64,000 nucleotides of DNA from NCBI RefSeq assembly GCF_021026315.1, contig NZ_JAJNCX010000007.1:1-64000 (forward strand). Direction: 5' to 3'. Below are positions 579-58,121 of this stretch, piece after piece. The DNA is from Rhizobium sp. C4. Its GTDB lineage: Bacteria > Pseudomonadota > Alphaproteobacteria > Rhizobiales > Rhizobiaceae. The number at the start of each line of letters is the position of its first letter. Within the stretch, counting starts at the first letter, position 1. The notes below the pieces were generated by a model that searched no databases, had not been told where the DNA came from, and worked only from the letters and a program-made list of their open reading frames with translations. Position numbers and translations under genes: made by a program.

Positions 579-1166
579 TCAACCGCGATGGCGGCGTACC
601 AGCGATTCCGGGCTGATCAGCGAGTCGAGGTCGATGTCGACAAAACGCTGCAGAACAAGGCTCGCGAGCCCGGCTATGGGGTTCGTCTCCCTGAACGCAT
701 TCAGACTTTCTGCGAGTGATAGTGTGCCGTGTTCTTCGAGACCGGCGAGCAGCCGGATACGATCAGCCAATGACACTTCGACGCCGACATATCGGAGCAG
801 ATCGCGCGCGTTCTTCAACCGGATGGGATCGATGTCACCGCGCAAAATCGCTTTGTAACCATATCCTTCACTAACGACGACGTCGTTGATCCAGGTGGGC
901 GGCGCATCTTTCGAAAGGACGTCAATCACCAGGATGCCATTGTCGGTCTCGGCAATGATATCGGGCTTGTGCGTGTCATAGCCGTGACTGAAGGTCAGCT
1001 TGCGGCATGCCCATGCAGCAACCGAACTATCGACGTCCAACAGGCATCCAACATCACGGGCCAAAGGGCTCGTAAGGATCACGGGTCCGACACAACGGAC
1101 ATATTGAATTTTCGAGGAGGAATCAGTCGGGCTGAAAGCGCGACGTCTTTGGGTATGAACACTCAT
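579..1166 (-). CDS. hypothetical protein with TnsA-like nuclease-fold signature
   Basis: This is a 195-residue protein (a GTG at 1178 would add four residues). Residues roughly 25-90 show the pattern of the TnsA/VRR-type restriction-like fold: a stretch around VGCLLDVDSSVAAW, then KPDIIAETDNGILVIDVL. The latter matches the D...(D/E)xV core of such nucleases, but no lysine follows at the usual place (VIDVLSK is the closest). The C-terminal half is helical. It lies about 135 bp downstream of tniQ on the same strand. If the fold call is right, it may be a second TnsA-like factor or a target-site helper. The resemblance is by eye only. Confidence 0.5.
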   Translation of the reverse strand: MSVHTQRRRAFSPTDSSSKIQYVRCVGPVILTSPLARDVGCLLDVDSSVAAWACRKLTFSHGYDTHKPDIIAETDNGILVIDVLSKDAPPTWINDVVVSEGYGYKAILRGDIDPIRLKNARDLLRYVGVEVSLADRIRLLAGLEEHGTLSLAESLNAFRETNPIAGLASLVLQRFVDIDLDSLISPESLVRRHRG

Positions 1167-1301
1167 AACAGAACCCACAAACAGGCAATGGACCGTGCCC
1201 CATCGTCAGGGGCGGCGGATCAAAGCGATATTCGTAGGTTGTGCGAGCGTGTTTTCATGATGAGAACGAATAGAGAACAAAGGCTGAGTTGTCAAGGACT
1301 T

Positions 1302-3485
1302 TTATCGAGTGTTTGGGCGAATACTGACGCGGTGCATGCATTTTAAAAATGCAATGGCATTGTCGATGCTCGTGCCGTTGTCCACGTCGATCTGGAATTT
1401 GACACCTCCATCTTCCTCGTGCCGCCAGTCCAACCACGGCAGTGCTTCAGCAATCGCGGCACGCCGATCCATGACCAGGTTAAAACGCCGCTTCGAATGC
1501 TTCGGATGAATATGCATTTTCACAGACAAGCCGCCGTCATCACGCTTTTCGGCATAACAGGCGACCGTGCTCGTGGTTGTCGCGATTTTCGCACGTCCGT
1601 CTGTGAAGGTCTGTTGCACTGCATAGGGTAAGCCCTCTGTTTGGAGCCGTTCCTTCATGGCTTCCCAAAGCGGGCATGTTGCAACGATGTCATCAGGGTC
1701 ACGGTCCAAACCAAGCGCGGCTCTTGCTTCGGATCGAACGACAATTGTGCCTCCCAGCCGACCATCCCGAGGGTCGAAGACCGTTCTGATGCCACGGGCG
1801 CGAAGGGCAGTGCGAATGTTGCTGGGGCTGCAATTCAAATGCGAGCGGTAGAGCTGCGCATTGGCATATTTCCCGTCAAATGCCTCGAAAGACCGTCTGC
1901 GAACCATCGATTTCGTTTTCGAGATGGGAACCAATTTCAGCTGACCCTGCTTCGCCAGGCAGGAAATCGTCTGCATCTGCAACCCGGTTTGCGCCGCGAT
2001 CTCGGCAAAGGTCATGTCATCGGACCGGCGTTTGATCGCGATCTCATGACCTGCCGGAGCAACATCGACATCAAAACAAAGACTGGCGAAACCCTGATAC
2101 AGGGGGTCAGCGCGAACAGGTTGCAGGCGACCTTCCAGTACTGCAATCACCACATCGGAGGGCCTTGATCCGATCCGTCTCGCATATCCGCGTAAAGGCA
2201 ACTGTCCCGACATCGTTTTGGCCTTGGCTGATGGCAGCACCTTGGCAACCAGTCTTTCGACTTCCGATGCCACGTATCGACGCCCCCGCGTCTGCCCCCT
2301 CGACACGGCCGTGATCGAATTGATGAAGCCTGCCTTTTCCAGTCTTGAGAACTCATGAGCGCGCAAGCCGGAAATTTCTTCGCTTTCTGTTGCCGTTACG
2401 AGCTGATCGATGGTGTCCTTCAATCTGTCCATCATATCCGGATCGAAAAACAGGTTGTAGCGGTCGAGACCAAGGCCCAGGTGCTTTACCAGATTTTTCA
2501 ATCCGTCTTCGCTGATGTCGAGAACGCGCGATGCCTCCGCAAGGGTCAACTCCAGCCGATTTTCAGAAACCTGGTCCCTCAGAATGCGGGAAATTCTGCC
2601 CGTCTTGGCAAGGGCCTCCCTCATGGCTGCGATGCAATCGTCCACTAGGTCCGACCGTTCGCAAGGAACCACGAAGTTCAATGCACCGTAGACGAATTTC
2701 GAACCTCTCTTCCGTTCTTCCAGCGTCCAGTTCTCGGTCAGCCATTGCTGGATCGAGGCGACGAGATGCATCCGGCTTGCAGACAGTGCCGCATACGAGA
2801 GGGCAATATTTTCACCGCCATTCCGTCCACCCCTACGTTGAAAAATGCGCGACAGGAAAGTGATCGCATCGATAATCTCCGCCAACGGCCTGCCGACAAA
2901 CAACTCCGGCTCCGGACCGCAGTCATGGCGCAGGCGGTGGATGATGAATCCTTCGAACCGGGTGCAAGCATCGGAATGTCTGCACGCTGTTCGCGCGAGG
3001 TCTTCGCCACGAGGCGTTAACGTGACACCCGACTTGACCCACCGGAGCCATTCTCCTGCTTCGCTCTTTCCGTTGAGCTTCAGACCATGCAACGGGCAGT
3101 TCTGGAATGCCTGGATGTCCCACCAGACCTTGTGCGTGTGATCCTCGGCGAGACATGCCGGACATAAACGCCGCTTGGTGATGCTCAGCTGACGGACACG
3201 AACGGCATCGTCGCCAAGGTGGTAGAGCTTTCCTCTCCGCAATGGCGTTGCCTGGATCAAGACGTTTCTCGACGCTTCATCGAGCCCAAGCGTCAACAGC
3301 GAGTTCAGCAGCTCCTCGGGATTGATGTGCTTTCCATTCAGCCCGATTTCCGTCGCATAGATTTTCGTGCTCGAATGACCCTCATCCTCAACCAACCTCG
3401 AAAAGTAGCCATAAGATGGCTCTCCTGGTTCCGGCTTGAGGTGCCAACTGGAGAACGGGCGGGCAAGGATGTTCTCGACCTTCAT
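1302..3485 (-). CDS. tniQ: TniQ/TnsD-family target-selection protein of Tn7-like transposon
   Basis: TniQ/TnsD proteins recognise the insertion site and recruit the TnsC ATPase. This 727-residue protein opens with a proline-rich segment (PEPGEPSYGYFSRL) typical of TniQ. A zinc-finger pattern follows: CPAC at about residues 108-111 and CPLH at about 130-133, then another CRHSDAC cluster. After this comes a long C-terminal part with helix-turn-helix-like repeats, as in TnsD-type proteins that bind a fixed chromosomal site. The ATG at 3485 starts one base after the tnsC stop; the open frame extends further upstream but that would overlap tnsC. The length fits a site-specific TnsD-like selector better than the short TniQ of CRISPR-guided elements. 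The probable target is the tRNA-Thr gene at 13785. Confidence 0.88.
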   Translation of the reverse strand: MKVENILARPFSSWHLKPEPGEPSYGYFSRLVEDEGHSSTKIYATEIGLNGKHINPEELLNSLLTLGLDEASRNVLIQATPLRRGKLYHLGDDAVRVRQLSITKRRLCPACLAEDHTHKVWWDIQAFQNCPLHGLKLNGKSEAGEWLRWVKSGVTLTPRGEDLARTACRHSDACTRFEGFIIHRLRHDCGPEPELFVGRPLAEIIDAITFLSRIFQRRGGRNGGENIALSYAALSASRMHLVASIQQWLTENWTLEERKRGSKFVYGALNFVVPCERSDLVDDCIAAMREALAKTGRISRILRDQVSENRLELTLAEASRVLDISEDGLKNLVKHLGLGLDRYNLFFDPDMMDRLKDTIDQLVTATESEEISGLRAHEFSRLEKAGFINSITAVSRGQTRGRRYVASEVERLVAKVLPSAKAKTMSGQLPLRGYARRIGSRPSDVVIAVLEGRLQPVRADPLYQGFASLCFDVDVAPAGHEIAIKRRSDDMTFAEIAAQTGLQMQTISCLAKQGQLKLVPISKTKSMVRRRSFEAFDGKYANAQLYRSHLNCSPSNIRTALRARGIRTVFDPRDGRLGGTIVVRSEARAALGLDRDPDDIVATCPLWEAMKERLQTEGLPYAVQQTFTDGRAKIATTTSTVACYAEKRDDGGLSVKMHIHPKHSKRRFNLVMDRRAAIAEALPWLDWRHEEDGGVKFQIDVDNGTSIDNAIAFLKCMHRVSIRPNTR

Positions 3486-3486
3486 G

Positions 3487-4428
3487 TCATTCCTCCAGGA
3501 AGAAATCGTTGGTCGCGCCGACCGACAGTTCAGACCAGGACTCTTCGTGAAGGTGGCTTCGCATGATGCAGGCCGTTCCGTCGTTGATGGCCCGGTAGGC
3601 GGCCCGACGAACAAGGTTCATGACACGGCCGATAATGCCGTCGCTGTAGCGGTAGAAATCATAGGTCCATCCCGCTCTGCTCAAGCGCGAAGAGGCTGTA
3701 AACGGCATGCGCTTGTCGATGCCCTCAAGCAGCAGTCGGAAGTGCTCCATGCCGATCTCATCCGTTCCCATCGCCTGGATATGCTTGGCAGGGAAGCCGC
3801 CCCGTCCGACAAGGTAATCGATGTTGCGCACGAAGGTCTGCAGCCGCTTCTCGCCAACCATCAGGACATTGAGAGAATTCAAGTCCGCCAGCTGTTTGAC
3901 GAAACTCTGAAACTCGGCAACATGCTTGCGGTGACGGTCGAAAAACAGAAATTGCGCGTCATCGATGATGACCAGTTCGGTTCCTGCTCGTTTCAGCCGC
4001 AGCAGTGCGTTGCGCACCAGCGTCGGGATTTTTACAGACGGCACTGAACGGGCACCGGTCTCGAAGTAAATCCGTTCCGCCATTGTCGCAGGTGTCATTT
4101 CCGACGCTGCTGGAATGTAGACGACGGGGTAGATTTCGCCGTCATCCGCCAGTTTGGGCGGAATGTTTTCGGCGTAATACCGGCAGATGGCCGACTTGCC
4201 AGTTCGCGAATGACCAAGCAGCCCACCGATGTTGCCGGTGTCCGCGAGACCCCCTTCAATGGGATAATGGAAGCGGCGAATAAACTCCTGGGCAGCCTTG
4301 AACTGCGGATAGGGGTAGAGTGCCGTCTTTACCAACATCTGCCGCTCATGAATGGGAAGAGCGGCTGCAGCGCGACGCTCCTCGTCGGTGCGATACGGTG
4401 TGATATGGAATGTCTGTCGGCTGGTCAT
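3487..4428 (-). CDS. tnsC: TnsC/TniB-family AAA+ ATPase of Tn7-like transposon
   Basis: This is the regulator ATPase that links target selection to the transposase. It has 313 residues, with Walker A GHSRTGKS at about 72-79, Walker B ELVIIDD at about 151-157, and a downstream arginine-rich sensor region (VGRGGFPAKHIQ). The size matches the TniB/short TnsC class. The ATG at 4428 lies two bases after the tnsB stop and is chosen over the in-frame ATG at 4443, which would overlap tnsB. Its stop is one base from the tniQ start, so the three genes are almost certainly translated as one coupled operon. Confidence 0.9.
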   Translation of the reverse strand: MTSRQTFHITPYRTDEERRAAAALPIHERQMLVKTALYPYPQFKAAQEFIRRFHYPIEGGLADTGNIGGLLGHSRTGKSAICRYYAENIPPKLADDGEIYPVVYIPAASEMTPATMAERIYFETGARSVPSVKIPTLVRNALLRLKRAGTELVIIDDAQFLFFDRHRKHVAEFQSFVKQLADLNSLNVLMVGEKRLQTFVRNIDYLVGRGGFPAKHIQAMGTDEIGMEHFRLLLEGIDKRMPFTASSRLSRAGWTYDFYRYSDGIIGRVMNLVRRAAYRAINDGTACIMRSHLHEESWSELSVGATNDFFLEE

Positions 4429-4430
4429 GA

Positions 4431-6692
4431 TCAATCGTCCCATTCTGCGTTGCGAGCGCGGATGTCATCGATCTTGTCGACTGCACTGCTCGCAGACGTT
4501 GTTGGATTTTCAGGCGCATCGACAGCTTCTGGAGGCCGTCCATCCCGTTCCTGTTCAGACGCTGCCGTTGCTCGGACAGGGGGCTTTCGCGACGGCACGG
4601 TGGGCGCTTCAAAATCGATGCGGCCGCCGCCCTGAGGCGTGGGTTCGACCTCGATTGTCCTGGTGTATTGCAGGCGCTTCTGGTTCGAACCAAGAAAGCG
4701 TGCCAGCTTGTGAGCGGTGTTGTGCTTCTTGCGAAGCGAATGCAAGTCCATCAGCTCATTCTGAAGTGCCGCCATTGACTCGTAGAGGGCGGATGCATCC
4801 TCAATCGCCTTGTTGCGCTTGAGGTGGTATTGCATCACCTTCTCGTGCTGGAACTTGCTCAGACCCTTGGCATACTTCTGGTCAGACGGCGTTGCCGGGA
4901 CCAGATAGATGCGATTGGAATACGGGTCGTGGGCCCAGACATGATCAAGGTTCTTTGGGTCCCTGATGACCATGTACTTCCGGCCCTGCTTGTGATGAGG
5001 GTGAAGCAGGATCGCCTGGAGCGATGGGTCTTGGTAGATGATATGGCTCCATTGGATGCCGTATTGCTGAATGGTGAGATATTTGCAGTTGCCCGCAAGC
5101 CGAACGAAGATTTCTTCGTCGACTGGAACAACCGGCTCGCTGAGCGCAATTCCCTTCTCCCAAAGGTCGGCAGGAACGCCTTTGGCTCGGGCAATGTGAC
5201 CCAATCCGGCATGAGCCCGACGGTTATGGATTTCGGCAAAATAGCGATAGAGGAAGCCTCTGACTTCCTGCATTGTCAGGATCGGAACGCCCTTCTGCTT
5301 GATCTCGTCAAACATCTTGCGTTCGTCGATGGAGCCAGTTGTCGTGCCCGGGAGACGATGGACAAGGTCCTGATTGACCAGATGAAAGAGGTGTTCCTCG
5401 GCACCCTTTTCATGCGGGTGCCCCGGTCTGTATTCGACAGTCTGAAAGCCGAGTTGGATCGCTGCGTTCTGGATGTCGTATCCCAGGAAATGAAGCGCAT
5501 TGTCGACACCAATTTTTGATGGTCTGCCATACCACGGGAATTCCACCCCCTCCGGCAGCTCCTCGGGCCGCTTCGGAAAAATGGCGTTGCGTAAACCGGA
5601 AAGGAAAGTATCGAAACTGGGAGTTCCGAAACTCAGTTCAAAACCAAGAACGATGCCGCTGTGCCGGTCTCTGAACGTCAACAGGTCCGGTCTGCCATAA
5701 GCGACCGGATGTTCGTCATCGATGACGACAATATCCAGATCGGTGTGGTCGACGTCGACAACATCGAGCGGTCGTGTCGGCCTCTCGATACGAGCCCGCG
5801 TCGCATGCTTTCGTTCCGCAAATTCGGGACCGTAGGTCAGGAAATCGTGCGTGAAGTGATCGAGGTCAGACAAACGTCGCTGAACCGTTCGATCCGACAT
5901 CTGAAACTTGCCGTCTTTGAACATCCAGCCGAGATCGGCATATTCGCCCTCCGGACTGCACAATTTCCTGATGCGGGCGTCAACGGCAAGCCAGGTGCCC
6001 TTTGACCCCGATACTGCATCCTGAATTGCCAAGGAGACCATCTCTTCAACCCGCCGCGCAAACACATGTCTCCGGTTTCCCGGACGCGGCATGGGTGCCA
6101 GCGCAAGCATCCTGTCGAAATACCGTCCCTCTTCCTGTTTTCCGATCCAGCGGTAAACAGTGGGAACCGATGGAGGCGTCTCACCAAGCTTTTCTGCGAC
6201 TTCGGCAATGACCCGCTTGATAATCTTCCTGGAATGTTGGCCAAGGCCTGCCTTCCTGCACGCGTCTGCAATTGCGTCCAGGTAGGCCGCCCTGCGCTTC
6301 GGCTCCTTCAATTCCTTTGCAGTCATCACCAATGCGCTGCCAGGGACTGCACCGCGATCATCCTTTTGGGAGACGGAGACCGGTCTGATCTGGTTGTTCG
6401 CATTCAGATGGGCGATCTGGAAATGGCTGAGGTAAACTTGCGCGCCATATTGCATGTCTTCCAGCACCACACGCGTCGGCGCGTCGCCAGATTTGTGCAA
6501 CCATTGTTTGACGATGAAATGCCCGTAGGCCTGCCGGTCAGGCGTATAGAGGAAATACCGGTCGTTCACGTTCATCTTGAACTCCTGGGTCTCTTTGACC
6601 GAGGGGTCGTGCAACGGTACGGCAAGGGCCTCATGCGAAAGCAGCTTGTGAACCGGGTTCAAGAACTCGAAACGGTCGGGGACGATGCTCAT
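4431..6692 (-). CDS. tnsB: TnsB-family DDE transposase of Tn7-like transposon
   Basis: This RNase-H-fold transposase cuts and joins the 3' ends of the element. The 753-residue protein has an N-terminal region with helix-turn-helix segments (about 150-300) for binding end repeats. The catalytic core follows: D315 in VVDVDHTDLD, D397 in IGVDNALHF, and the glutamate at about 432/433 in HEKGAEEHLF. A Mu-type C-terminal beta-barrel region and a charged tail (after about 650) that should contact TnsC come next. It overlaps tnsA by four bases (ATGA), showing tight coupling. All three acidic residues are present, so the enzyme looks intact. Confidence 0.92.
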   Translation of the reverse strand: MSIVPDRFEFLNPVHKLLSHEALAVPLHDPSVKETQEFKMNVNDRYFLYTPDRQAYGHFIVKQWLHKSGDAPTRVVLEDMQYGAQVYLSHFQIAHLNANNQIRPVSVSQKDDRGAVPGSALVMTAKELKEPKRRAAYLDAIADACRKAGLGQHSRKIIKRVIAEVAEKLGETPPSVPTVYRWIGKQEEGRYFDRMLALAPMPRPGNRRHVFARRVEEMVSLAIQDAVSGSKGTWLAVDARIRKLCSPEGEYADLGWMFKDGKFQMSDRTVQRRLSDLDHFTHDFLTYGPEFAERKHATRARIERPTRPLDVVDVDHTDLDIVVIDDEHPVAYGRPDLLTFRDRHSGIVLGFELSFGTPSFDTFLSGLRNAIFPKRPEELPEGVEFPWYGRPSKIGVDNALHFLGYDIQNAAIQLGFQTVEYRPGHPHEKGAEEHLFHLVNQDLVHRLPGTTTGSIDERKMFDEIKQKGVPILTMQEVRGFLYRYFAEIHNRRAHAGLGHIARAKGVPADLWEKGIALSEPVVPVDEEIFVRLAGNCKYLTIQQYGIQWSHIIYQDPSLQAILLHPHHKQGRKYMVIRDPKNLDHVWAHDPYSNRIYLVPATPSDQKYAKGLSKFQHEKVMQYHLKRNKAIEDASALYESMAALQNELMDLHSLRKKHNTAHKLARFLGSNQKRLQYTRTIEVEPTPQGGGRIDFEAPTVPSRKPPVRATAASEQERDGRPPEAVDAPENPTTSASSAVDKIDDIRARNAEWDD

Positions 6693-7459
6693 CTTCCACC
6701 TCCCGCCACGCGCCTCACGACGCTTGTCTCCGAAAATGGACGGTCGAGATCGATCTCCAATTCGCCAAGGATCACCAGTTGCATGACGCCGGAAAATGTC
6801 AGGCTGCGATCCCGTTGAGGTCGCAGAATTTCATCGAATGCCTGGTGCTGCTGGCCGAGTTTCACCTCGCGCAACAACGTGCCAAGCGTCACCGGCATCT
6901 GAACGAAGCGGAGCAATTGCCGAAGCTTTGCGAGAGGTACGTTCGATTGCGCAACTGCCCGGTGGGCCCAGAGCGTCTTGATATTGTCGAAAAGCGGCTG
7001 CGCGTGGATATGCCGCTCATCGAGGACGGTATAGGCGCTGTCATAGACATCACGGCAGAATTCGCGAAGGTTCAGCTCCCTGTCTTCATAAAAGCTGTTT
7101 GCCTGCCGGATTTGATAGGGAACGAAGTCGATGAAGACGACCGAGCCATCCTTTTTAAGGACCGCCAGATCGGGCGTCTGTTCGCGCTTTTTCAGGTTGC
7201 CGGACTCGTCCATCACCCCGAACACGAGGGAAAGGGGATAGGGCGAAATCCGCCTCACCTGCGGATCGGTGTCGATATGCATCAACCCGTCCGCCATCAG
7301 CGGCGCGCGATAGCGGATTTTTTGTTGCGGTGCCTTGCTCGTTGGAAACCAGCCCGGCAAGGTCTTGTGCCTCAGGCGGACGGGTGGCGACCAGACGGGC
7401 TCGTGGCCATCGCTGAAAATGCTCGACAAGGAATGGCGAGCGCGAAAATCTACGCTCAT
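6689..7459 (-). CDS. tnsA: TnsA-like endonuclease of Tn7-like transposon
   Basis: TnsA makes the 5'-strand cuts that turn Tn7 transposition into cut-and-paste. This 256-residue protein is first in the tns operon and has the TnsA layout: an N-terminal nuclease domain (ISPYPLSLVFGVMDES, then QTPDLAVLKKDGSVVFIDFV) and a helical C-terminal domain for TnsB/TnsC contact. The aspartate of TPDLAV fits the catalytic Asp. However, the usual (Q/E)VK tail of the site reads FIDFVPYQ here, so the lysine is not obvious and activity is uncertain. The start at 7459 has GGGAGA 5-6 bases upstream. The operon promoter should lie in 7460-7780. Confidence 0.78.
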   Translation of the reverse strand: MSVDFRARHSLSSIFSDGHEPVWSPPVRLRHKTLPGWFPTSKAPQQKIRYRAPLMADGLMHIDTDPQVRRISPYPLSLVFGVMDESGNLKKREQTPDLAVLKKDGSVVFIDFVPYQIRQANSFYEDRELNLREFCRDVYDSAYTVLDERHIHAQPLFDNIKTLWAHRAVAQSNVPLAKLRQLLRFVQMPVTLGTLLREVKLGQQHQAFDEILRPQRDRSLTFSGVMQLVILGELEIDLDRPFSETSVVRRVAGGGR

Positions 7460-7915: not shown

Positions 7916-8329
7916 TCACAGTCCAAGCCAAGAAGTGAAGCGCTTCCAAAGCTTGCCAAAGAAGCCAAGTTCCTGGGCCTGACGTTCAGCGTGAGCCGCC
8001 GCAGAAACACGTTGGTCGTGCACTCGATTGGCTTGTATCTCATCCGCAGAAAAAGCGCGCGTCCATCTGATCTCGTTTCGCGCTATGACGTAATGGGACT
8101 GGCAAGCTGAACTCCAATTCCCGATTGACGGATGAAGTGTGACAAGCCCATTTTCGTTTTTCATCTCCCATTTTCCAGGCTTCAGCGGCGTTACGATCTT
8201 TACGCCGCAACCGCAGCAGCAATTGTGTGCAGCGGTGCCGAATTCTTCGGAAATGTATAGGACGCCGTCATCCATCACCTTCGGTATTCGGCGAACAAAT
8301 TCCGGGTGTATCGACTTGAGCTTTGTCAT
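7916..8329 (-). CDS. DUF6527-family cysteine-rich protein of ubiquitin-like operon
   Basis: This 137-residue protein has the DUF6527 signature: CCCGCG at residues 37-42 followed by TPL, a LHPSIGNW segment at about 65-72, and CQSHY at 76-80. The cysteine pair plus Cys76/His79 would make a plausible metal site. In other genomes such proteins occur with multi-ubiquitin and ThiF/E1 genes, where a zinc-dependent role in processing or removing the ubiquitin-like protein has been suggested; I infer the same role here. The C-terminus is basic and hydrophobic (FFGKLWKRFTSWLGL), possibly amphipathic. The start at 8329 (MTKLKS) overlaps the E1 gene by 62 bp; an ATG at 8338 is also possible. Confidence 0.75.
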   Translation of the reverse strand: MTKLKSIHPEFVRRIPKVMDDGVLYISEEFGTAAHNCCCGCGVKIVTPLKPGKWEMKNENGLVTLHPSIGNWSSACQSHYVIARNEIRWTRAFSADEIQANRVHDQRVSAAAHAERQAQELGFFGKLWKRFTSWLGL

Positions 8330-9506
8330 AGATATCATCTTTGCAAAGAAGGCTGTTTCCTATGGTGTATGAGATGAAACGCTCATGGCCAATGTCGAAA
8401 TAGAAGCCTCTGGTTTTTTTCCATTCGATGACCGCCAGGCAGGCGTTCAGCGCGTTCAGATCAGCAACCTGAATATTTCGGTCGTACTCGTTTTCAACGT
8501 CGTCCACTGCGAAGGATATGCGCGCACGCGCTTCCGCACGACGGTCGGGGAGACTACGAACCGTTCGCAAAATGCCGCCAATACTGGCACGCTTTGTGTA
8601 AAGACCCATTCCCACGTCGATGAAGGGCGTTCCCAGCGCTTCCAGCTTGTCGATGATCATTCGCTTTGCCGGTCCGCTTTCCATGCAAAGAAACACGAAC
8701 GACATATTCTGGAGCTGATCGAGATTTTCGCCTGTCAATTTCTCAGGGTGAGCTACGATGCCACGATGCATCTTGGAATAGGTGGCAGCAAAATAGTCGA
8801 CCTTCTTGGGTCGAAGTCTAAGCTCTTCGAGAGAAGGCGCGCCAGGGGCCCTAAACGCGTTATGAGTTAGGAAGTCGTCATCGTCGAACAGATGGATTCT
8901 TCTCGCATTCGTCTTGGCGATCAAGTCCAGGACATACGACCCTGTTCCACCGAGGCCAACGATGGCAATCGCCTCTTCGGCCAGCTTTTCTGCTGCCTCG
9001 TTGATTTCGGCACGGGAAGAGGCGGTGTCGAGGTAATGGTGAGGCGACGTTTCGGGATCGCCTTCAACAATGCGAAAAGTTCTGGCTGTTGCATTTGGAT
9101 CGATGGCTGCCACCTCCCTCGCCAACAAGGCGATATAGGCAGTCATCTTCTCATGATAGTCATTGTAGTAGCCGCAAAGCGGCTTCCTGGAAAAGGAGTG
9201 ATCGGCCTTCAACCCGCTTCCAAGCTGAAATTCTTGAGTTTGATGCTGCAGGATCACCAACTGGTTCCCATTGCTGTCACATGGAAAGTCGCCACAGAAC
9301 TTTGCCGTGTGATCCTGCGGACGAACGGTCCGATCCCCTGCCAAATCTAGGTTCGAGGCCAAAGCCCCTAATGCAATGGTTCTGTCGCCTTTGACGTACG
9401 GGACGTCACTTATAACCAGAAAATTCTGGTTCGTGATTTGGACGTTGTACCCCTCGTCGCGAAGTCTCTGAAGATCGGGATTAAGAGCGATTAGTGTGTG
9501 CGACAT
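8268..9506 (-). CDS. ThiF/E1-like ubiquitin-activating protein with N-terminal extension
   Basis: This 412-residue protein has a C-terminal E1/ThiF domain with the nucleotide-binding GLGGTG at 184-189, acidic LFDDDD at about 206-211 and the N216/R219 pair expected to hold ATP. It should adenylate the C-terminus of the neighbouring ubiquitin-like protein. The first 150 residues are not part of the ThiF fold. They contain FCGDFPC (about 70-76) and an HHY motif (156-158), and may be an E2-like transfer domain fused to the E1, as known for some bacterial ubiquitin-like operons. No CxxC zinc pair is seen. The gene overlaps the multi-ubiquitin gene by 26 bp and the DUF6527 gene by 62 bp, indicating coupled translation. 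Confidence 0.85.
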   Translation of the reverse strand: MSHTLIALNPDLQRLRDEGYNVQITNQNFLVISDVPYVKGDRTIALGALASNLDLAGDRTVRPQDHTAKFCGDFPCDSNGNQLVILQHQTQEFQLGSGLKADHSFSRKPLCGYYNDYHEKMTAYIALLAREVAAIDPNATARTFRIVEGDPETSPHHYLDTASSRAEINEAAEKLAEEAIAIVGLGGTGSYVLDLIAKTNARRIHLFDDDDFLTHNAFRAPGAPSLEELRLRPKKVDYFAATYSKMHRGIVAHPEKLTGENLDQLQNMSFVFLCMESGPAKRMIIDKLEALGTPFIDVGMGLYTKRASIGGILRTVRSLPDRRAEARARISFAVDDVENEYDRNIQVADLNALNACLAVIEWKKTRGFYFDIGHERFISYTIGNSLLCKDDIYDKAQVDTPGICSPNTEGDG

Positions 9507-9954
9507 CGAAGTTGGTCCCGTGTTTTTTCACAGTGACACTGCCGTTCTGGGCAAGATCACCGTGATGAGGTTTGCTCTTTGCGTGTTCGAAGCTCACGGT
9601 AAACGCCGGATCGGTTCCGGTCGGCGGATTTGGAAAAGCAAGCTTCACAAGCTGGTCAAACGTCAGAACGTCATGATCGACGACAAATGGATCGGTGTTG
9701 ATCGTGATGGAGAAGTGCTTTTCGGGCGCTTCTCCGCTGTGGAAGTGCTCATCCTGCTTCAGGTGTATCGTCGGCTGATCGATCCTGACTAGCTTGTCTT
9801 CTTCATTGCCAGTCACTTCTCGATAGAGAACACGGCCGTCACGGACGTGGCCCAGTTCGTACAGGTCGATGCCGCTCGTGGGATTGCGGGAGTGATACTG
9901 CTTTTGATCAATGTGGATTCGAACGGAGTTAACTGCATCTTGATTCATTTTCAT
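9481..9954 (-). CDS. multi-ubiquitin domain protein (two tandem beta-grasp units)
   Basis: This 157-residue protein contains two beta-grasp units. Unit 1 runs from about residue 8 (VRIHIDQKQYHS) to 75, unit 2 from about 80 (KHFSITINTDPFVVD) to the end. Each starts with a beta-strand followed by a DLYELG or FDQLVKLA helix, as in the multiubiquitin family. The C-terminus (NFDVAHTNRS) has no Gly-Gly, normal for this family, where the tail may be processed. The frame is open to 10143, but an apparent promoter and operator lie at 9976-10010, so I place the start at ATG 9954 (a second ATG is at 9948). It is the first gene of the leftward operon with the E1-like and DUF6527 proteins. Confidence 0.85.
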   Translation of the reverse strand: MKMNQDAVNSVRIHIDQKQYHSRNPTSGIDLYELGHVRDGRVLYREVTGNEEDKLVRIDQPTIHLKQDEHFHSGEAPEKHFSITINTDPFVVDHDVLTFDQLVKLAFPNPPTGTDPAFTVSFEHAKSKPHHGDLAQNGSVTVKKHGTNFDVAHTNRS

Positions 9955-9975: not shown

Positions 9976-9991
9976 GTTCGCTATATCGAAC
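9976..9991. promoter_or_regulatory. palindromic operator 1 (GTTCG-N6-CGAAC)
   Basis: GTTCGCTATATCGAAC is a near-perfect 16-bp palindrome. It shares the GTTC-N8-GAAC geometry with the second site at 10024-10039. It overlaps the likely -10 region of the leftward multi-ubiquitin promoter; a TTGACA-like -35 lies on the minus strand at about 10007-10012. It is a likely binding site for the HTH protein encoded at 10071. Confidence 0.7.
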
Positions 9992-10021: not shown

Positions 10022-10041
10022 TTGTTCGATATATAGAACAA
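10022..10041. promoter_or_regulatory. palindromic operator 2 (TTGTTC-N8-GAACAA)
   Basis: This 20-bp site has perfect 6-bp arms and the same GTTC-N8-GAAC core as operator 1, 48 bp away. It lies 30 bp before the HTH gene start, so the HTH protein could repress its own promoter and the divergent ubiquitin-like operon together. Confidence 0.72.
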
Positions 10042-10070: not shown

Positions 10071-10391
10071 ATGACTGTATCGCTGCGTGACAAGCTGAAA
10101 AAACACAGATTGGAATTGGGGTACTCACTGGACGAGTTGGCAAAGCTGTCCGGTTCGAGCAAAAGTTATCTGTGGGAGCTGGAAAATCGCGAGACCCGTA
10201 AGCCGTCGGCAGAAAAGCTTATCAAGATCGCCGAGGTCCTGAATGTTACGACCGACTATCTGATTGACGATAACGCGACGTTTGACGATGCCCAGGTGAA
10301 GGAGGTCTTCTTCCGCAAATTCAATAGCCTTGACGACGAGACCAAGGAAAAGGTGATGGACATGATCGACGTCTGGAGTCGCAAAAAGTGA
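10071..10391 (+). CDS. XRE-family HTH transcription regulator (CapH-like)
   Basis: This 106-residue DNA-binding protein has a classic XRE helix-turn-helix at about residues 5-60 (LGYSLDELAKLSGSSKSYLWELEN, then KPSAEKLIKIAEVLNV) and a short helical C-terminus suited to dimerisation. It is divergent from the multi-ubiquitin operon and overlaps the ImmA/IrrE protease gene by GTGA. This pair matches the HTH/metalloprotease modules (CapH/CapP type) that control CBASS and other defence systems: the HTH protein represses until its partner protease cleaves it. The two GTTC-N8-GAAC palindromes upstream are likely operators. The regulatory role is inferred from layout. Confidence 0.85.
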   Translation: MTVSLRDKLKKHRLELGYSLDELAKLSGSSKSYLWELENRETRKPSAEKLIKIAEVLNVTTDYLIDDNATFDDAQVKEVFFRKFNSLDDETKEKVMDMIDVWSRKK

Positions 10392-11209
10392 AGCAACCCA
10401 CGACATGGGATGGTTGGGCTTCACGTGTCTCGCTTTTTGCCCGGGAGGGAAAGAAACTCCTGGACCTTCCACGGTTTCCAATACGGATAGAGGAGTTCGC
10501 TGAGGGCTATAGCAGACAGCTTTTCCCCGGCGACCCCATTACGATGATTGATAGCAGGGACTTTGGTGGCAAGTTTGAAGGCGCGTTGGTACCCAACGTC
10601 GCTAAAGATGAGTGGGCCATTATATACGATCACGGCCATACGTCCCGAGGCCGGATCAACTTCACTTTGGCTCACGAGTTCGGCCACTACCTCATTCATA
10701 GGCGGCTCAGTGGCGATCCATTTTATTGCTCCCGCCGCCAGATGATGGAATGGGACAGCAAATATTCTCAGATGGAAGCTGAGGCCAATAGCTTCGCTGC
10801 CTTCGTCCTCATGCCGCCCGACGATTTTCGTGAGCAAACGAAGAATTTCCAGAAGCCGACGCTCCGAGATTTTGAAATCTTGCGCGACCGGTATGAAGTC
10901 TCCTTAACTGCCGCAGTTCTTAATTGGCTGAAGTCGACAAGTGTGAGAGCCATGCTCGTGGTCGGACGGGACGGGTTCATCGATTGGTCTTGGAGCAGCT
11001 CGACGTTGTACAATTCCGGCGTCTATTTCTCGGCAAGGAAAGTGACCATAGCTTTACCAGAGCAATCACTGGCAGCTTTGGGGCCAACTTGCGGCATTAC
11101 CAGCCAGCAACACCCCAAGGGTGTCTGGAACGACGATACGGCCGTCTTCGAGTCCGTGGTTTTTGCGGAACACCATGGCATGACGCTGTCGTTGCTAATT
11201 TACGGGTGA
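10388..11209 (+). CDS. ImmA/IrrE-family zinc metallopeptidase (CapP-like)
   Basis: This 273-residue protein starts at GTG 10388, overlapping the HTH stop. The zinc site HEFGH is at about residues 96-100, and the third ligand is probably Glu132 in EAEANSFAAFVLMP; both are hallmarks of the ImmA/IrrE (COG2856) family. The C-terminal 100 residues resemble sensor extensions of this family. Such peptidases cleave their partner XRE repressor in response to DNA damage or single-stranded DNA, turning on the linked genes. Here the linked genes are the ubiquitin-like operon. The alternative is a simple toxin-antitoxin-like pair. Confidence 0.85.
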   Translation: MKQPTTWDGWASRVSLFAREGKKLLDLPRFPIRIEEFAEGYSRQLFPGDPITMIDSRDFGGKFEGALVPNVAKDEWAIIYDHGHTSRGRINFTLAHEFGHYLIHRRLSGDPFYCSRRQMMEWDSKYSQMEAEANSFAAFVLMPPDDFREQTKNFQKPTLRDFEILRDRYEVSLTAAVLNWLKSTSVRAMLVVGRDGFIDWSWSSSTLYNSGVYFSARKVTIALPEQSLAALGPTCGITSQQHPKGVWNDDTAVFESVVFAEHHGMTLSLLIYG

Positions 11210-11244: not shown

Positions 11245-11721
11245 TCAGTGTGTATCGAAATCGTTATACGGGCTCCCGCATACGACGCTGACGTATATTT
11301 CTAGCAGGCATTGCCGCGTCGGATCAGGTTCGTTGACAAACCGGAATTCCATCGCCCTCATCCGGATCAGGGCGTCGTTGAACGCCCTTAGAAATTCAGC
11401 ATCGAGCATGAGATTGGCCCGCGATGTCGGTCCGCTCTTGTAATCGCTCTTCAATATGCCGGTCGCTTCGCGAGCGAGCTTGAAGGCGAAAGGTGCATTG
11501 TTATGGCCTGTCCCGTGGCGCGTATGTTGGCCATACCGTGATCTGACATTCCTGGTACGGCCGACATAGAGATGACGGCCATTTTCGGAAAATAGGTAGA
11601 CGCCAGACCCCTTGATATGAGACGGCAATATTCCGTCCGTGACAGGGTCCATCTGCATCAATGTTTCGAATTTCGGGTGCAGAGCCTCGGTAAAGGTCAG
11701 GAATTTTTCATGCATGCTCAA
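11245..11721 (-). CDS. GIY-YIG nuclease-domain protein
   Basis: This 158-residue protein has the GIY-YIG pattern as GVY (40-42) and YVG (52-54), followed by R55 and R60 and a later acidic residue, which together form the metal-dependent nuclease site. No other domain is attached. It is convergent with the ImmA/IrrE gene (35 bp apart) and lies 20 bp downstream of the NYN gene on the same strand, so the two nucleases may be co-expressed. The role is unknown: defence, selfish DNA or housekeeping of the island are all possible. An ATG at 11715 would shorten it by two residues. Confidence 0.8.
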   Translation of the reverse strand: MSMHEKFLTFTEALHPKFETLMQMDPVTDGILPSHIKGSGVYLFSENGRHLYVGRTRNVRSRYGQHTRHGTGHNNAPFAFKLAREATGILKSDYKSGPTSRANLMLDAEFLRAFNDALIRMRAMEFRFVNEPDPTRQCLLEIYVSVVCGSPYNDFDTH

Positions 11722-11741: not shown

Positions 11742-12440
11742 TCAGGCAGTGGGTGTTTCCGTTGGGGGAGCATATGCTGGTGGCCGACGCGCAATCAAAG
11801 TCCCGTTTTCAATAATGGTAGCGCCAGGAAAGAGGCTTGCCTCAATGGCTTCTCTTTGAATGGTTCTTGTCGCGTGCGAGTGAGCTATGATCGCTTTGCT
11901 GTGCCCTCTGCCAGGAGGAGCGACGCTTACAATAGTTTTCGATGGGAAGCGCGCTTTGAACATCTTCATCGTTGCTAGCTGGTCTGAGTCGGCGGTAACC
12001 AAATATGCAACGTCAAAAACATCAAGGTGAGCGTCGCTAATAAGGTGGATCGCGAGATTTACATCGCCTTCCTTTTCGGTGGGATGCAAATAATCATGTC
12101 CCTCATGGCAGCGACGTGGTTCCTCAGTAAAGTGGCCCTCAACGCACACCACTCCTGCCCACAGTTGAGCCTTCTTGTATTCGCGCCATCGCAGCATCTT
12201 TTGGGTGTTTTTGTTGTTAACTGCCGTGCACCACACAACTCGGACCACCTCTTCCCCATTCCGCGCGAATTGGCGGGAAAGAGCGAACAAATTTACCCAC
12301 TTTAGATGGGGTGCTCCGAGATCATCAATTGCGTGATAAAGGTTGAAGCCGTCAATATATACAGCGGCTCTAATGGAAACGGCGGCACCAGGGCCGCCGT
12401 GGGCTGCCGGTAAACCGACAGCGTTGATGACAGTATTCAT
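11742..12440 (-). CDS. NYN-domain (PIN-like) ribonuclease
   Basis: This 232-residue protein has the NYN/LabA-type fold. The first catalytic Asp lies in AAVYIDGFNLY, the middle acidic pair in EKEGDVNLAIHLI, and the third in LVTADSDQ, all in the order expected for PIN-like RNases. The ATG at 12440 is preferred because AAGGCG lies 8 bases upstream; the open frame begins at 12464 without a ribosome-binding site. It is the first gene of a two-gene unit with the GIY-YIG protein. Its substrate is unknown. Confidence 0.82.
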   Translation of the reverse strand: MNTVINAVGLPAAHGGPGAAVSIRAAVYIDGFNLYHAIDDLGAPHLKWVNLFALSRQFARNGEEVVRVVWCTAVNNKNTQKMLRWREYKKAQLWAGVVCVEGHFTEEPRRCHEGHDYLHPTEKEGDVNLAIHLISDAHLDVFDVAYLVTADSDQLATMKMFKARFPSKTIVSVAPPGRGHSKAIIAHSHATRTIQREAIEASLFPGATIIENGTLIARRPPAYAPPTETPTA

Positions 12441-12677
12441 AGCCCATCGCCTTGAAAAAATCAATGCCCTTTTTTCTAAACTATGATGTGAAGTCTAAAT
12501 TTTAGCCTAACGGCCTGGTTGTGATCGAGCAGGTTTGTCAAGCTAACAGGGTTTTAGAAAAAAAGAAGATGCAGCATTTGCCCAGAAAGGGTGTTTTTCC
12601 CGGTGTTTTATGAATTAAGTTGCACTCGTTTCCGCCGACAGGCACATTTTATCAAAAATATTACGGAGGCTGCTCTT

Positions 12678-13708: not shown

Positions 13709-13778
13709 GAGTCTCATCTCATGTGGCGAGGAGTCTCACCTCATGTGGCGAGAGTCTCATCTTATGTGGCGACCTACA
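13709..13778. mobile_element. probable Tn7-like transposon end: three tandem 21-bp repeats ending in TACA
   Basis: Three near-identical 21-bp units, sharing CTCATGTGGCGA, occupy 13709-13729, 13731-13751 and 13752-13772, all in the same direction, and are followed by CCTACA to 13778. Read inwards from the outside, the end starts TGTAGG, matching the TGT...ACA ends of Tn7-like elements, and the closely packed repeats resemble TnsB-binding sites of a Tn7 right end. The end is 6 bp from the CCA of tRNA-Thr. An IS21-family end has a similar look and is the main alternative, but no istA/istB gene is nearby. The partner end is outside the window. Confidence 0.6.
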
Positions 13779-19814: not shown

Positions 19815-20039
19815 ATGACTGGCCCCGAGACCACCCCGAAGAGTGCCAAGGTAGAACCCTTGCGCAAGCCGCGCCCATGCCCCGAATGCGGGCAGCCCTC
19901 GGCGCGCGAACACTATCCCTTCTGCTCCGACCGCTGTCGCAATGTCGACCTGTCGCGCTGGCTCAAAGGCTCCTATTCGATCCCGGTAACAGAGGACGAG
20001 GAAAAGGCGGACGGCTTCGAGCGCGACTTTGACCGTTGA
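19815..20039 (+). CDS. yacG: DNA gyrase inhibitor YacG
   Basis: This 74-residue zinc-binding protein has the four-cysteine motif CPECGQP with FCSDRCRNVDLSRWL. YacG binds GyrB and can inhibit gyrase. It starts 7 bases after the maf stop and is the last gene of the infA-maf-yacG group; the C-terminal acidic tail is normal for the family. Confidence 0.93.
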   Translation: MTGPETTPKSAKVEPLRKPRPCPECGQPSAREHYPFCSDRCRNVDLSRWLKGSYSIPVTEDEEKADGFERDFDR

Positions 20040-20201
20040 TTTTCCAAGGTTTTCTGAACTTTGTAATTTTCTTCAAAAAACAGTCAAAAAACTTTGTCGG
20101 GGCGCTGGACACACGCGAACAAGATGCTATAACCCCGCTCGCTTCCGGGGAAAACCCGGCGGGTTCTTTCAAAAAGAAACCCGGTCAGTCAAGCGACAAG
20201 T

Positions 20202-20277
20202 GCCCGGATAGCTCAGTTGGTAGAGCAGCGGATTGAAAATCCGCGTGTCGGTGGTTCAAATCCGCCTCCGGGCACCA
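20202..20277 (+). tRNA. tRNA-Phe (anticodon GAA)
   Basis: A 76-nt cloverleaf including encoded CCA: acceptor GCCCGGA/TCCGGGC, D-arm AGCTCAGTTGGTAGAGC, anticodon stem GCGGA/TCCGC around TTGAAAA (anticodon GAA), T-arm GGTTCAAATCC. It follows yacG as in related genomes. A foreign-looking methylase pair begins 64 bp downstream on the other strand, so the 3' side of this tRNA may be an old integration point. Confidence 0.97.
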
Positions 20278-20340
20278 TTTTTCTCGAATGATTATTTGGT
20301 TGGTTAATTGGATTGATCGCGGCTTTGTGTTTACTCTTGG

Positions 20341-21645
20341 CTAATCGAGTTTATTTCGCAAGCTCTCGTACGTGTCTATCAATGTTCGGATGCTCGTTGT
20401 TAGTTCCTCGATCCGAAACCTCCTTTTCACACGGTCTGTTTTTACGACGGAATCGTACTCGACGTAGCGTTGGGGAAGGAGTGAGAATTCTTGCTTCTTT
20501 ATTTCGTCAGCATGCGTAAGCTTGCTGAAGCCTTTCTCCGAGCTCAGCCCTTGGAATATATGGATTATTTTATCTAATTCGATTGTATCCAATACAACTC
20601 GCTGGGCGATGCGTTTGCCTAGCTCTCGGGCATCAATCATCAATACGTTGTCACCATCGTGTCCCGAAGTGCCGCGACGTAGAACAAGAATTGCTGTTTC
20701 GATTGCCGTGTTCGGCGCAGACAATCGGGCTGGCAGCGCTATAACCGCTGCAAGGGCGCGTTCTTTAATTAAGAATTGACGAATATTTGCGTCATTGCCT
20801 CCTCTAAAAAGCACGCCAACGGGAACTAGAACTGCCGCCATGCCCTGATCTTTCAAATGATGATAAGCTGAAAGCAAATAGGCCAGTTCGCTTGATATTT
20901 TTCCTCTGTCGTGTTTTAACAAAGCGGGAGTACCCTCCAGCCACTGCAGGTCTTGCAACTCGAATTGGATTCCAAATGGTGGGTTAGTCAATACTGTATC
21001 GAACTTGTGTACCTCATCTACTAGTCGCCTTTTACCCCCTCGGTTGTTGCTTCTCTTGTTGATATGAAGCCTTACATTAGGGGTTTCGTTAAGCGCAAAC
21101 CTTACCTGTGCCCAAGCGGCGGCGTATTCATTGGCCTCATACCCCTCAAGACATGTTGGTCCGATTGTAGTCTTGGATGCAGCCACGAGGAGCGAGCCGC
21201 TCCCGCAAGCTGGATCGAAGATGTTGAAGCAATGGTCGTGCCTTGTCAGCATAACCATTAACCTTGCCACCTCTTCAGGTGTTTCATGTGAAAGTGGAAT
21301 TTCAAGGGAATCCAGCTGTCGCAAGAGCCATGCCTCAAGTTCTTCTTCGGTGTTTTCCCCCGGAAGCGATGAAAGCAGCTCGGATACCGAGGTTTCGTCA
21401 AGCCATTGGAGGTCTCCCAAAAGGTGCTCGCTGAATGCTTTGTTTTCCCAACCTAGCATAATTTCTAACTCATGGGCCGAATGCAGAACGTCAGTGCGAT
21501 GGTTCCATTTAGGGTAATTGTGCTGCGCTCGATGAACGAGAGTGGCGAGCACAATAAGCGCAAGGGCTAAATCAGTATTGGTCCGTGCTACTGAGCGCGA
21601 AATAATGTTGCGCATTTTCTTGATTGCATCGTCAAATTGGCTCAT
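20341..21645 (-). CDS. N-6 adenine DNA methyltransferase, HsdM-like, orphan
   Basis: This 434-residue methyltransferase has motif I FDPACGSGSLL (about 141-151) and motif IV NPPFG (about 218-222), the layout of the type I modification subunit. Shorter than usual HsdM (about 500 residues), it has an N-terminal region (LALALIVLATLVHRA) unlike the standard HsdM_N domain. It overlaps the HsdS-like gene by ATGA. No hsdR is present within the window. The DNA is more AT-rich than flanking core genes, pointing to horizontal gain next to tRNA-Phe. It could be an orphan methylase, a phage-defence pair of a non-classical type, or the remains of a type I system. Confidence 0.85.
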   Translation of the reverse strand: MSQFDDAIKKMRNIISRSVARTNTDLALALIVLATLVHRAQHNYPKWNHRTDVLHSAHELEIMLGWENKAFSEHLLGDLQWLDETSVSELLSSLPGENTEEELEAWLLRQLDSLEIPLSHETPEEVARLMVMLTRHDHCFNIFDPACGSGSLLVAASKTTIGPTCLEGYEANEYAAAWAQVRFALNETPNVRLHINKRSNNRGGKRRLVDEVHKFDTVLTNPPFGIQFELQDLQWLEGTPALLKHDRGKISSELAYLLSAYHHLKDQGMAAVLVPVGVLFRGGNDANIRQFLIKERALAAVIALPARLSAPNTAIETAILVLRRGTSGHDGDNVLMIDARELGKRIAQRVVLDTIELDKIIHIFQGLSSEKGFSKLTHADEIKKQEFSLLPQRYVEYDSVVKTDRVKRRFRIEELTTSIRTLIDTYESLRNKLD

Positions 21646-55607: not shown

Positions 55608-57239
<1,632 letters not shown>

Positions 57240-57274
57240 TGCCGATATGGGCGTTTCGTGCCTGCGAATTGCCC

Positions 57275-57345
57275 CAAGCTATGTCGTACCGGACTTGAGC
57301 CGGCATCCAGTCAGCCCGTGTTTGCGGGCTGATATGTTTTGCTGC
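57275..57345. repeat. short rhizobial palindromic repeats after pgm
   Basis: TACCGGACTTGAGCCGG (57287-57303) and TCAGCCCGTGTTTGCGGGCTGA (arms TCAGCCCG/CGGGCTGA, about 57310-57331) are intergenic palindromes. The first resembles the element at 58036-58063 on the other side of the AT-rich gene; the second has a loop like the efp terminator and may end pgm transcription. Confidence 0.55.
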
Positions 57346-57437
57346 GTTGCGAGGCGGAAGACGACTTGGGAACAAGCATAGGTCTCAAAGAGGACGCATT
57401 GTAGTTTCAGCATGATGTTTTGATGTGGAGCTGCTTC

Positions 57438-57962: not shown

Positions 57963-58035
57963 CGTGTCCGGATGTTCCGAGTTTTGACGATGCGGTTCCT
58001 CGGTCGTAGAGTCTTTTCAGCCGCCGACGCGGGCT

Positions 58036-58063: not shown

Positions 58064-58121
58064 ACGGAGATCTTGGACCGCTTTGGACTGAGCGGGGCCA
58101 TTGATATGGACGAGGTGGCAC

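What the first reader, a model, noticed from the sequence alone, without database searches (positions are those of the whole stretch)
7916..9954. Ubiquitin-like conjugation operon in a mobile element
Three overlapping minus-strand genes encode a tandem beta-grasp (multi-ubiquitin) protein, a ThiF/E1-like enzyme with an extra 150-residue N-terminal domain, and a DUF6527 protein with a CCCGCG metal-type motif. Gene overlaps of 26 and 62 bp show tight coupling. Related bacterial ubiquitination-like operons are known from comparative genomics and recent biochemical work. What is distinctive here is the lack of a separate E2 gene, with the N-terminal E1 extension (FCGDFPC) a candidate transfer domain, and the linked regulator pair. 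It is a good candidate for a phage-defence or stress module.
Basis: partly seen in the sequence, partly recalled or inferred. Interest (0 to 1): 0.82.

Follow-up and report, generated by a model that had tools for sequence, protein, structure and literature searches.

The report
Serine-ended bacterial ubiquitin-like operon
This is a mobile, stress-controlled bacterial relative of the ubiquitin system that has no separate E2 enzyme or deubiquitinase gene and whose ubiquitin-like protein ends in serine instead of glycine, which hints at an unusual activation chemistry that can be tested directly.

Summary
The three genes are real and correctly placed: multi-ubiquitin-like protein (Ubl), DUF6791-ThiF E1-like enzyme, DUF6527 protein. 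Divergently beside them lie CapH and CapP regulators with two palindromic operator-like sites. They sit in a Tn7-like element whose outer end abuts tRNA-Thr.

It is a known kind: Iyer et al. 2006 (PMC1779556) described polyUbl operons in which an unknown domain replaces JAB on the E1. In 43 such loci I find Ubl 43, DUF6527 42, E2 0, JAB 0; 13 JAB-E1 comparison loci carry all of these.

What I add: the Ubl ends in serine in 46 of 46 operons, always codon TCN, where the 13 comparison loci have glycine at or next to the end. The codon pattern says the serine is selected in the Ubl frame. The E1 keeps the adenylation residues and the tyrosine matching BubCD Y370, but has no conserved cysteine.

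Phage defence is plausible but untested; conjugation itself is inferred.

The parts
9481..9954 (-). multi-ubiquitin-like protein (Ubl), 157 aa, tandem beta-grasp, ends ..HTNRS
   Evidence: ORF; Pfam Multi_ubiq 6.9e-14; profile match to PDB 9cd2 1.3e-59; last codon TCT, one of 46 of 46 TCN
8268..9506 (-). E1-like enzyme, 412 aa: DUF6791 (10-161) + ThiF adenylation domain
   Evidence: Foldseek best match Citrobacter BubCD 3.9e-12; adenylation residues conserved
7916..8338 (-). DUF6527 protein, 140 aa, likely metal-binding (C40, C42, C44, C79, H82)
   Evidence: those residues in 41 of 41 relatives; AlphaFold2 pLDDT 89
9481..9506 (-). 26-bp Ubl/E1 gene overlap holding the serine codon
7864..7905 (-). 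12-bp perfect inverted repeat just after the operon, possible terminator hairpin
   Evidence: I3; function not tested
10071..10391 (+). CapH-type HTH repressor, divergent
   Evidence: PADLOC capH 3.8e-28; Pfam HTH_3
10388..11209 (+). CapP-type M78 metallopeptidase
   Evidence: PADLOC capP 1.3e-58; Pfam Peptidase_M78
9976..9991 (.). operator-like palindrome GTTCGCTATATCGAAC in the divergent promoter region
   Evidence: pattern found 2 times in 64 kb, 0 in 100 shuffles; the pattern was drawn from these sites
10024..10039 (.). second operator-like palindrome GTTCGATATATAGAAC
6689..7459 (-). TnsA-like endonuclease of the carrying element
   Evidence: NCBIfam TnsA_like_Actin 1.2e-11, under cut-off
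4431..6692 (-). TnsB-like transposase
   Evidence: PADLOC TnsB 6.7e-24
3487..4443 (-). putative TnsC-like ATPase (by position and my reading; no family match)
1302..3614 (-). putative TniQ/TnsD-like protein (by position and my reading; no family match)
13710..13772 (+). three ~20-bp end repeats of the Tn7-like element; element end read as ~13778, then AAAAA, then the tRNA-Thr 3' end
   Evidence: similar repeats and TTTTT at the start of contig C13

Best explanation
A CapH/CapP-controlled, DUB-less and E2-less variant of the polyUbl/Bub ubiquitin-like systems. In resting cells CapH sits on the two palindromes and represses the operon; DNA damage or infection yields single-stranded DNA, CapP cleaves CapH and the operon is expressed (inferred from the published behaviour of CapH+CapP). 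The Ubl is made already mature, ending in serine, so no JAB peptidase is needed. The ThiF domain adenylates the terminal serine carboxylate using its conserved P-loop, Arg, Lys and Asp/Glu. The acyl group is then passed to a target without an E1 or E2 cysteine, with Tyr341 (equivalent to BubCD Tyr370) at the active site and DUF6527 as target adaptor or, less likely, as a Cys-bearing transfer factor. With no DUB in the operon the mark would be one-way. Shown here: gene content, domain families, invariant serine, loss of E2 and JAB, conserved adenylation residues and Tyr341, regulator pair, mobile carrier. Inferred: adenylation of Ser, target conjugation, DUF6527 role, induction, defence.
For: E1 core: G184, G186, G187, G189, D208, D210, R219, K235 in 42 of 42 and Asp at 276 in 40 of 42; R219, K235 and D276 align to R, K and D of TcdA, the MoeB Arg73/Lys86/Asp130 set named in PMC12355090 (passages). 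Tyr341 invariant in 37 of 37 and aligned by hhalign to the invariant Tyr of 13 of 13 JAB-E1s, which is Y370 of BubCD by my count on the printed alignment; a PDB entry is titled BubCD(D104A/Y370F)-BubB-BubA. Ubl C-terminal Ser 46 of 46, TCG 23, TCA 12, TCT 8, TCC 3, with the overlapping E1 residue 8 being only R, H, L or P: fixed first and third E1 codon bases and free second base, so selection acts on the Ubl frame. It is the only invariant column of 39 Ubls; the 46 fall in 23 clusters at 60% identity. JAB and E2: 0 of 43 each. CapH 18 of 43, all 18 divergent.
Against: No E1-activated Ubl ending in Ser is known to me; nothing shows that this E1 adenylates it. The window's E1 has Glu, not Asp, at 276 (2 of 42). 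A Ubl that polymerises or acts as a scaffold without conjugation would also fit. A possible extra Ubl-like frame in L120 (4525-4758, minus strand, not beside an E1 start) ends in Ala and was left out of the 46. Solved Ubls of related systems are described as filament-forming (recalled, paper not held).
Confidence: 0.45

Rival explanations
1. The Ubl is not conjugated. It is a multidomain scaffold or filament; the E1-like protein binds its serine tail as a sensor or adenylates it only (for example Ubl-AMP as the end product, as MccB does with the C-terminal Asn of its peptide), and DUF6527 is an effector or adaptor.
For: No E2, no JAB (0 of 43 each), no conserved E1 cysteine, no conserved tail glycine. 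The E1 profile matches MccB at 2.2e-06 and PaaA at 2.1e-04, though also ThiF, MoeB and UBA5. MccB's Asn substrate is recalled.
Against: Tyr341, shared with a conjugating Bub E1, is kept; MccB resemblance is not specific.
Confidence: 0.27
2. DUF6791 is an E2-like or UEV-like domain, so this is an E2-E1 fusion in the manner of Cap2, with an unusual active site (invariant H66, S106, K108, K120, Y124) in place of Cys.
For: Predicted order helix, four strands, hairpin region, helix in residues 2-133, like the UBC fold as I recall it; ten invariant residues including H66, S106, K108, K120, Y124 in 37 of 37; N-terminal placement as in Cap2 (recalled).
Against: No E2-family Pfam match in 37 of 37; hhalign 1.2% to the Bub-type E2; no structural comparison of that domain was possible; the position I would equate with the E2 cysteine is hydrophobic.
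Confidence: 0.3
3. The serine is kept for a nucleotide reason, such as translational coupling across the 26-bp overlap, not for chemistry.
For: The overlap is 26 bp in nearly all of the 41 relatives tabulated, so protein and RNA constraints cannot be fully parted.
Against: All four TCN codons and all three stops are used (TAA 25, TAG 17, TGA 4); only the Ser-specifying bases are fixed.
Confidence: 0.1
4. A host protease trims the tail to expose a glycine, making this an ordinary conjugation system.
For: JAB-type relatives have Gly at or next to the Ubl end in 13 of 13.
Against: No position in the last 8 residues is mostly Gly in the 46 tails; the tail T-x-x-S lines up with T-x-x-G of JAB-type tails, i.e. 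replacement, not extension.
Confidence: 0.07

Closest known systems
polyUbl operon, row 6e, 'domain X' subset (Iyer, Burroughs, Aravind 2006, PMC1779556; sections and table passages read)
   Same: Ubl with 1-3 beta-grasp repeats, E1 with an uncharacterised N-terminal domain in place of JAB, and a predicted Zn-binding protein
   Different: The terminal serine and the strict absence of E2/JAB are not mentioned in the parts I read; their motif is written C-x3-C-x(35-38)-H-x2-C, here C40-x3-C44-x34-C79-x2-H82
Bub (bacterial ubiquitination-like) pathway, BubA/BubB/BubCD (PDB 9ea4 and relatives; Ye et al. 2026 not held, titles only)
   Same: Ubl plus related E1 domain with conserved Tyr; CapH+CapP or CapW association reported for 219 of 544 Bub operons (PMC13373217, passages)
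   Different: No JAB domain, no E2, Ser instead of Gly at the Ubl end
PDB 9cd2, ZDHYS365 multi-ubiquitin domain protein
   Same: Solved Ubl whose chain ends TDKS and matches the family profile end to end
   Different: Three beta-grasp domains against two here; I could not read the paper it belongs to
CapH/CapP regulators of CBASS and other defence operons
   Same: HTH repressor plus M78 peptidase, divergent from the operon
   Different: Guards a Ubl operon here, as already reported for Bub
MccB, PaaA (E1-like enzymes acting on peptides)
   Same: ThiF fold acting on a substrate C-terminus that is not Gly (recalled)
   Different: Small peptides, not a Ubl; sequence similarity not specific

Membership tests
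polyUbl operon type 6e, JAB-replaced subset | Ubl with one to three beta-grasp repeats | tested here: met
   Multi_ubiq; profile match to 9cd2
polyUbl operon type 6e, JAB-replaced subset | E1 with an uncharacterised N-terminal domain instead of JAB | tested here: met
   DUF6791 8.4e-51; no JAB in 43 of 43 loci
polyUbl operon type 6e, JAB-replaced subset | Cys/His metal-binding partner protein | tested here: met
   DUF6527, ligand-like residues in 41 of 41; metal binding itself not testable
Bub pathway as BubA-BubB-BubCD | JAB-E1 fusion (BubCD) | tested here: not met
Bub pathway as BubA-BubB-BubCD | E2 protein | tested here: not met
   0 of 43 loci; none in own genome by Prok-E2_E, control
Bub pathway as BubA-BubB-BubCD | E1 domain with the Y370-equivalent tyrosine | tested here: met
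Bub pathway as BubA-BubB-BubCD | Counted among the 544 Bub operons of the authors | not testable with these tools
   their lists were not available
E1-dependent Ubl conjugation | Adenylation residues in the E1 | tested here: met
   window has Glu at 276
E1-dependent Ubl conjugation | Ubl C-terminal glycine | tested here: not met
   Ser in 46 of 46
E1-dependent Ubl conjugation | Covalent attachment to targets | not testable with these tools
   needs biochemistry
CapH/CapP regulator pair | CapH and CapP profile matches, divergent from the operon | tested here: met
   orientation
Tn7-like transposon | TnsA and TnsB homologues, end repeats at both ends, 5-bp duplication | tested here: inconclusive
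   TnsB met; TnsA under cut-off; repeats in C48 and C13 and AAAAA/TTTTT fit, but the ends lie on two contigs and no relative among 8 shows the empty site

The most novel reading that the evidence does not exclude
A whole branch of ubiquitin-like systems works with a serine-ended modifier: the E1 adenylates a C-terminal serine and passes it on through oxygen chemistry (Tyr341 or the DUF6791 pocket), with no glycine, cysteine relay, E2 or DUB. Gly-to-Ser at the tail, loss of JAB and loss of E2 would be one coupled change, giving an irreversible stress or anti-phage mark.
Probability: 0.35. Interest if true: 0.88.

Novelty: new variant of a known kind. Interest (0 to 1): 0.62.

Why it matters
Ubiquitin-like activation is normally read as needing a terminal glycine, a cysteine relay and, in bacteria with conjugation, an E2 and a JAB peptidase. 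Here all of these are missing together in loci from six phyla, while a serine is the only invariant residue of the Ubl. Either E1 chemistry is wider than thought, or bacteria keep an E1 and Ubl pair that does something other than conjugation. Both are settled by a small set of assays with two purified proteins, and the CapH/CapP link gives a ready induction signal.

Tried and rejected
FCGDFPC as an E2-like cysteine site: rejected. DUF6791 as a relic JAB: no profile similarity. DUF6527 as a known fold: Foldseek against PDB gave 160 matches up to E 10, best 0.82, none up to 0.001; against viral models one significant match, A0A8E7FZU2, 2.8e-12; Pfam gave only DUF6527 in 39 of 39 plus single weak hits. 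Middle Cys (C42) of DUF6527 as the missing transfer cysteine: it is in 41 of 41 DUF6791-type proteins and, counted from the sequences printed, in only 5 of 13 JAB-type ones, which favours the idea; but DUF6527 proteins from viral contigs, without the operon in the stretch matched, keep it too (invariant in 20 of 20 of A5), so I did not adopt it. Host JAB supplying DUB activity: one sub-threshold JAB match in the own genome reads as RadC (my reading, no family scan). Operator sites in relatives: a similar GTTCG palindrome in L005 but none of that type in the other 8 relatives tried. Empty site: no relative among 8 joins both flanks. Papers: searches; none that I saw describes the serine end or DUF6791/DUF6527 by name (no paper for either name), but Gong 2025, Ye 2026 and Chambers 2024 are not held, so I do not claim it is unpublished. 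Rows dropped before counts: of 72 stretches scanned, 16 carry neither a full DUF6791-E1 nor a ThiF+Ubl pair (L058 and L061 hold partial E1s; 8 hold DUF6527 only; 6, L090-L095, no profile hit); L005's E1 is split between two frames and was left out of the 42-sequence E1 alignment; L119, L121-L123 lack a Ubl because the contig starts inside the E1; the L120 minus-strand Ubl-like frame ending in Ala was left out. The E2 and JAB profiles were built from the 13 JAB-type loci, so 13 of 13 there is by construction; independent support is Pfam (Prok-JAB in 6 of 6 E1s scanned, one of them under cut-off; Prok-E2_E in 2 of 4 Ubl proteins scanned). Plasmid stretches were 23 of the 115 records found.
Full report
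What is there. The window holds three overlapping minus-strand genes at 9954-7916: a 157-aa Ubl, a 412-aa E1-like enzyme and a 140-aa DUF6527 protein. Pfam names them Multi_ubiq, DUF6791+ThiF and DUF6527, all over cut-off. Upstream and divergent lie CapH and CapP, and between them and the operon two palindromes of the form GTTC-NN-TATA-NN-GAAC, found twice in 64 kb and never in 100 shuffles (the pattern was taken from the sites themselves, first seen).

Carrier. A TnsB-like gene, a TnsA-like gene under its model's cut-off and two further ORFs in TnsC and TniQ position (no family match) lie to the left. Three ~20-bp repeats at 13710-13772 recur as three copies with 0, 1 and 3 mismatches at the start of contig C13, and nowhere else in the genome in either orientation (the pattern read backwards matched once). 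Both ends finish in a similar short sequence followed by AAAAA at C48:13779-13783 and TTTTT at C13:298-302, as expected for a 5-bp duplication; the end abuts the 3' end of tRNA-Thr. The two ends are on different contigs and no relative among 8 shows the joined flanks, so the element's outline is likely but not closed.

Relatives. P0002 has relatives in 115 of 72,556 plasmid records, 108 of them over at least 80% of the query, and in 0 of 50,697 phage records; DUF6791 occurs in 5 of 61 related genomes and 8 of 398 across the phylum; DUF6527 is commoner, 37 of 297 in the family. The loci I read come from Pseudomonadota, Cyanobacteriota, Actinomycetota, Acidobacteria, Bacteroidota and Bacillota.

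Gene content. Of 72 stretches scanned, 43 have a DUF6791-E1: all 43 have the Ubl, 42 the DUF6527 gene (the exception, L002, runs off its contig), none an E2 or JAB hit. Thirteen others have a ThiF protein with Ubl but no DUF6791: all 13 have JAB, E2 and DUF6527 (profiles built from these 13). Pfam supports this where tried: Prok-JAB in 6 of 6 E1s and Prok-E2_E in 2 of 4 Ubl proteins scanned, and Prok-E2_E in 3 of 3 JAB-type but 0 of 5 DUF6791-type whole genomes. The window's genome has no Prok-E2_E; Prok-E2_B also gave none, without a positive control.

The serine end. In 46 of 46 DUF6791-type operons (43 above plus viral-contig loci L118, L120, L124) the Ubl ends in Ser; codons TCG 23, TCA 12, TCT 8, TCC 3; stops TAA 25, TAG 17, TGA 4. 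It is the only invariant column in an alignment of 39 Ubls. The tails fall into 23 clusters at 60% identity over the last 75 residues and 17 at 50%. Because the E1 gene starts 26 bp before the Ubl stop, the serine bases also encode E1 residue 8, which is R 23, H 12, L 8, P 3: the middle base of that E1 codon is free while the outer ones are fixed, the opposite of what E1-frame selection would give. So the serine is kept for the Ubl. Thr at -4 (41 of 46) is less telling, since E1 residue 5 there is mostly Leu. In the 13 JAB-type loci the Ubl ends in Gly in 6 of 7 unfused cases, in GGA in the seventh, and the six Ubl-E2 fusions have TEG or NNG at the junction. A solved family member, PDB 9cd2, ends in TDKS at its last residue, 222, so the tail is visible in public data.

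The enzyme. In 42 E1s the glycine loop, D208, D210, R219 and K235 are invariant and D276 is Asp in 40; the window's protein and L099 have Glu there. R219, K235 and D276 line up with the same residues of TcdA, corresponding to the MoeB set named in PMC12355090 (passages). No Cys column reaches 90% (C76 32 of 42, C274 21 of 42). Tyr341 is invariant and aligns with an invariant Tyr of the JAB-E1 group (hhalign probability 99.1%), which is residue 372 of the BubCD chain on my count; with the 2-residue offset that puts the JAMM Asp at D104, it is Y370, mutated in the PDB entry BubCD(D104A/Y370F)-BubB-BubA. What Y370 does I could not read. The E1 model (pLDDT 77) is closest in the PDB to BubCD, then ThiF, PaaA, UBA5 and MccB.

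DUF6791. Ten residues are invariant in 37 of 37 (G19, P36, H66, G72, P75, G80, S106, K108, K120, Y124). Sequence methods link it to nothing. The model gives helix, strands 21-24, 29-38, 44-52, 68-71, a short hairpin region, helix 117-133. From memory that is the UBC order, so an E2-like fold is a fair guess, but not tested. Iyer et al. thought of a JAB-like function for this domain.

DUF6527. High-confidence model (pLDDT 89), no PDB relative. C40, C42, C44, C79 and H82 are in 41 of 41, a plausible metal site with two knuckles; in two viral-contig versions C79 is lost. Related solitary proteins occur in phage-like contigs and one viral model matches at 2.8e-12.

Regulation. CapH is found in 18 of 43 loci, divergent in all 18; WYL proteins in two more by profile and two by Pfam; in 11 of 43 a UvrD-type helicase gene ends just upstream on the same strand, and the one scanned carries an M78 domain and a PD-(D/E)XK domain. 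PMC13373217 (passages) reports CapW or CapH+CapP with 219 of 544 Bub operons, ssDNA-activated cleavage of CapH, and that Bub has not been shown to protect against phage. Whether its 544 include DUF6791-type operons I cannot tell.

Reading. The coupled replacement of Gly by Ser, loss of JAB and loss of E2, with the adenylation core and Tyr341 kept, is best explained by a modifier that is born mature and is activated on a serine carboxylate. That conjugation follows is inference, at about even odds with a non-conjugating use. Membership: it fits the 2006 type 6e JAB-replaced subset on every feature tested; it fails Bub's JAB and E2 features, so I call it Bub-like, not Bub.

Noticed in passing
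L006, L009, L010, L011, L059, L063, L066, L068, L069, L097, L098 upstream of the Ubl gene: In 11 of 43 loci a large UvrD-type helicase gene lies just upstream on the same strand; the one scanned (L011:1798-5205) fuses an M78 (CapP-like) domain, UvrD helicase and PD-(D/E)XK, behind a sigma-70 region 4-like gene. Possibly another DNA-damage controller.
   Followed up: partly
L126-L137: Short DUF6527 proteins in viral contigs, most without the C-terminal tail; a BFVD model, A0A8E7FZU2, matches at 2.8e-12. Could be counter-defence or an unrelated use of the fold; neighbours were not read.
   Followed up: no
window 11742-12464 and 11245-11721: NYN-domain protein matching PADLOC HEC-09 (2.4e-40) and a GIY-YIG protein, other cargo of the same element.
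   Followed up: no
window 579-1178: A second TnsA-like gene (NCBIfam 1.8e-05, under cut-off) besides 6689-7459.
   Followed up: no
P0002 residue 276: Glu in place of the Asp found in 40 of 42 relatives at the position matching MoeB Asp130; shared with L099.
   Followed up: partly
L120 4525-4758, minus strand: An extra Ubl-like frame facing the operon and ending in NNA, not Ser.
   Followed up: no
L058 (G001:C5): Same-genus genome with one full operon and, on the same contig, a decayed second E1 with stops.
   Followed up: no
DUF6527 residue 42: The middle Cys of CxCGC is in 41 of 41 DUF6791-type proteins but 5 of 13 JAB-type ones, yet also in 20 of 20 of the A5 set that includes viral-contig proteins.
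   Followed up: partly
window 20001-22000 and 56001-59000: Two further G+C dips (0.48 and 0.54-0.56), the first beside tRNA-Phe at 20202; possible other insertions.
   Followed up: no
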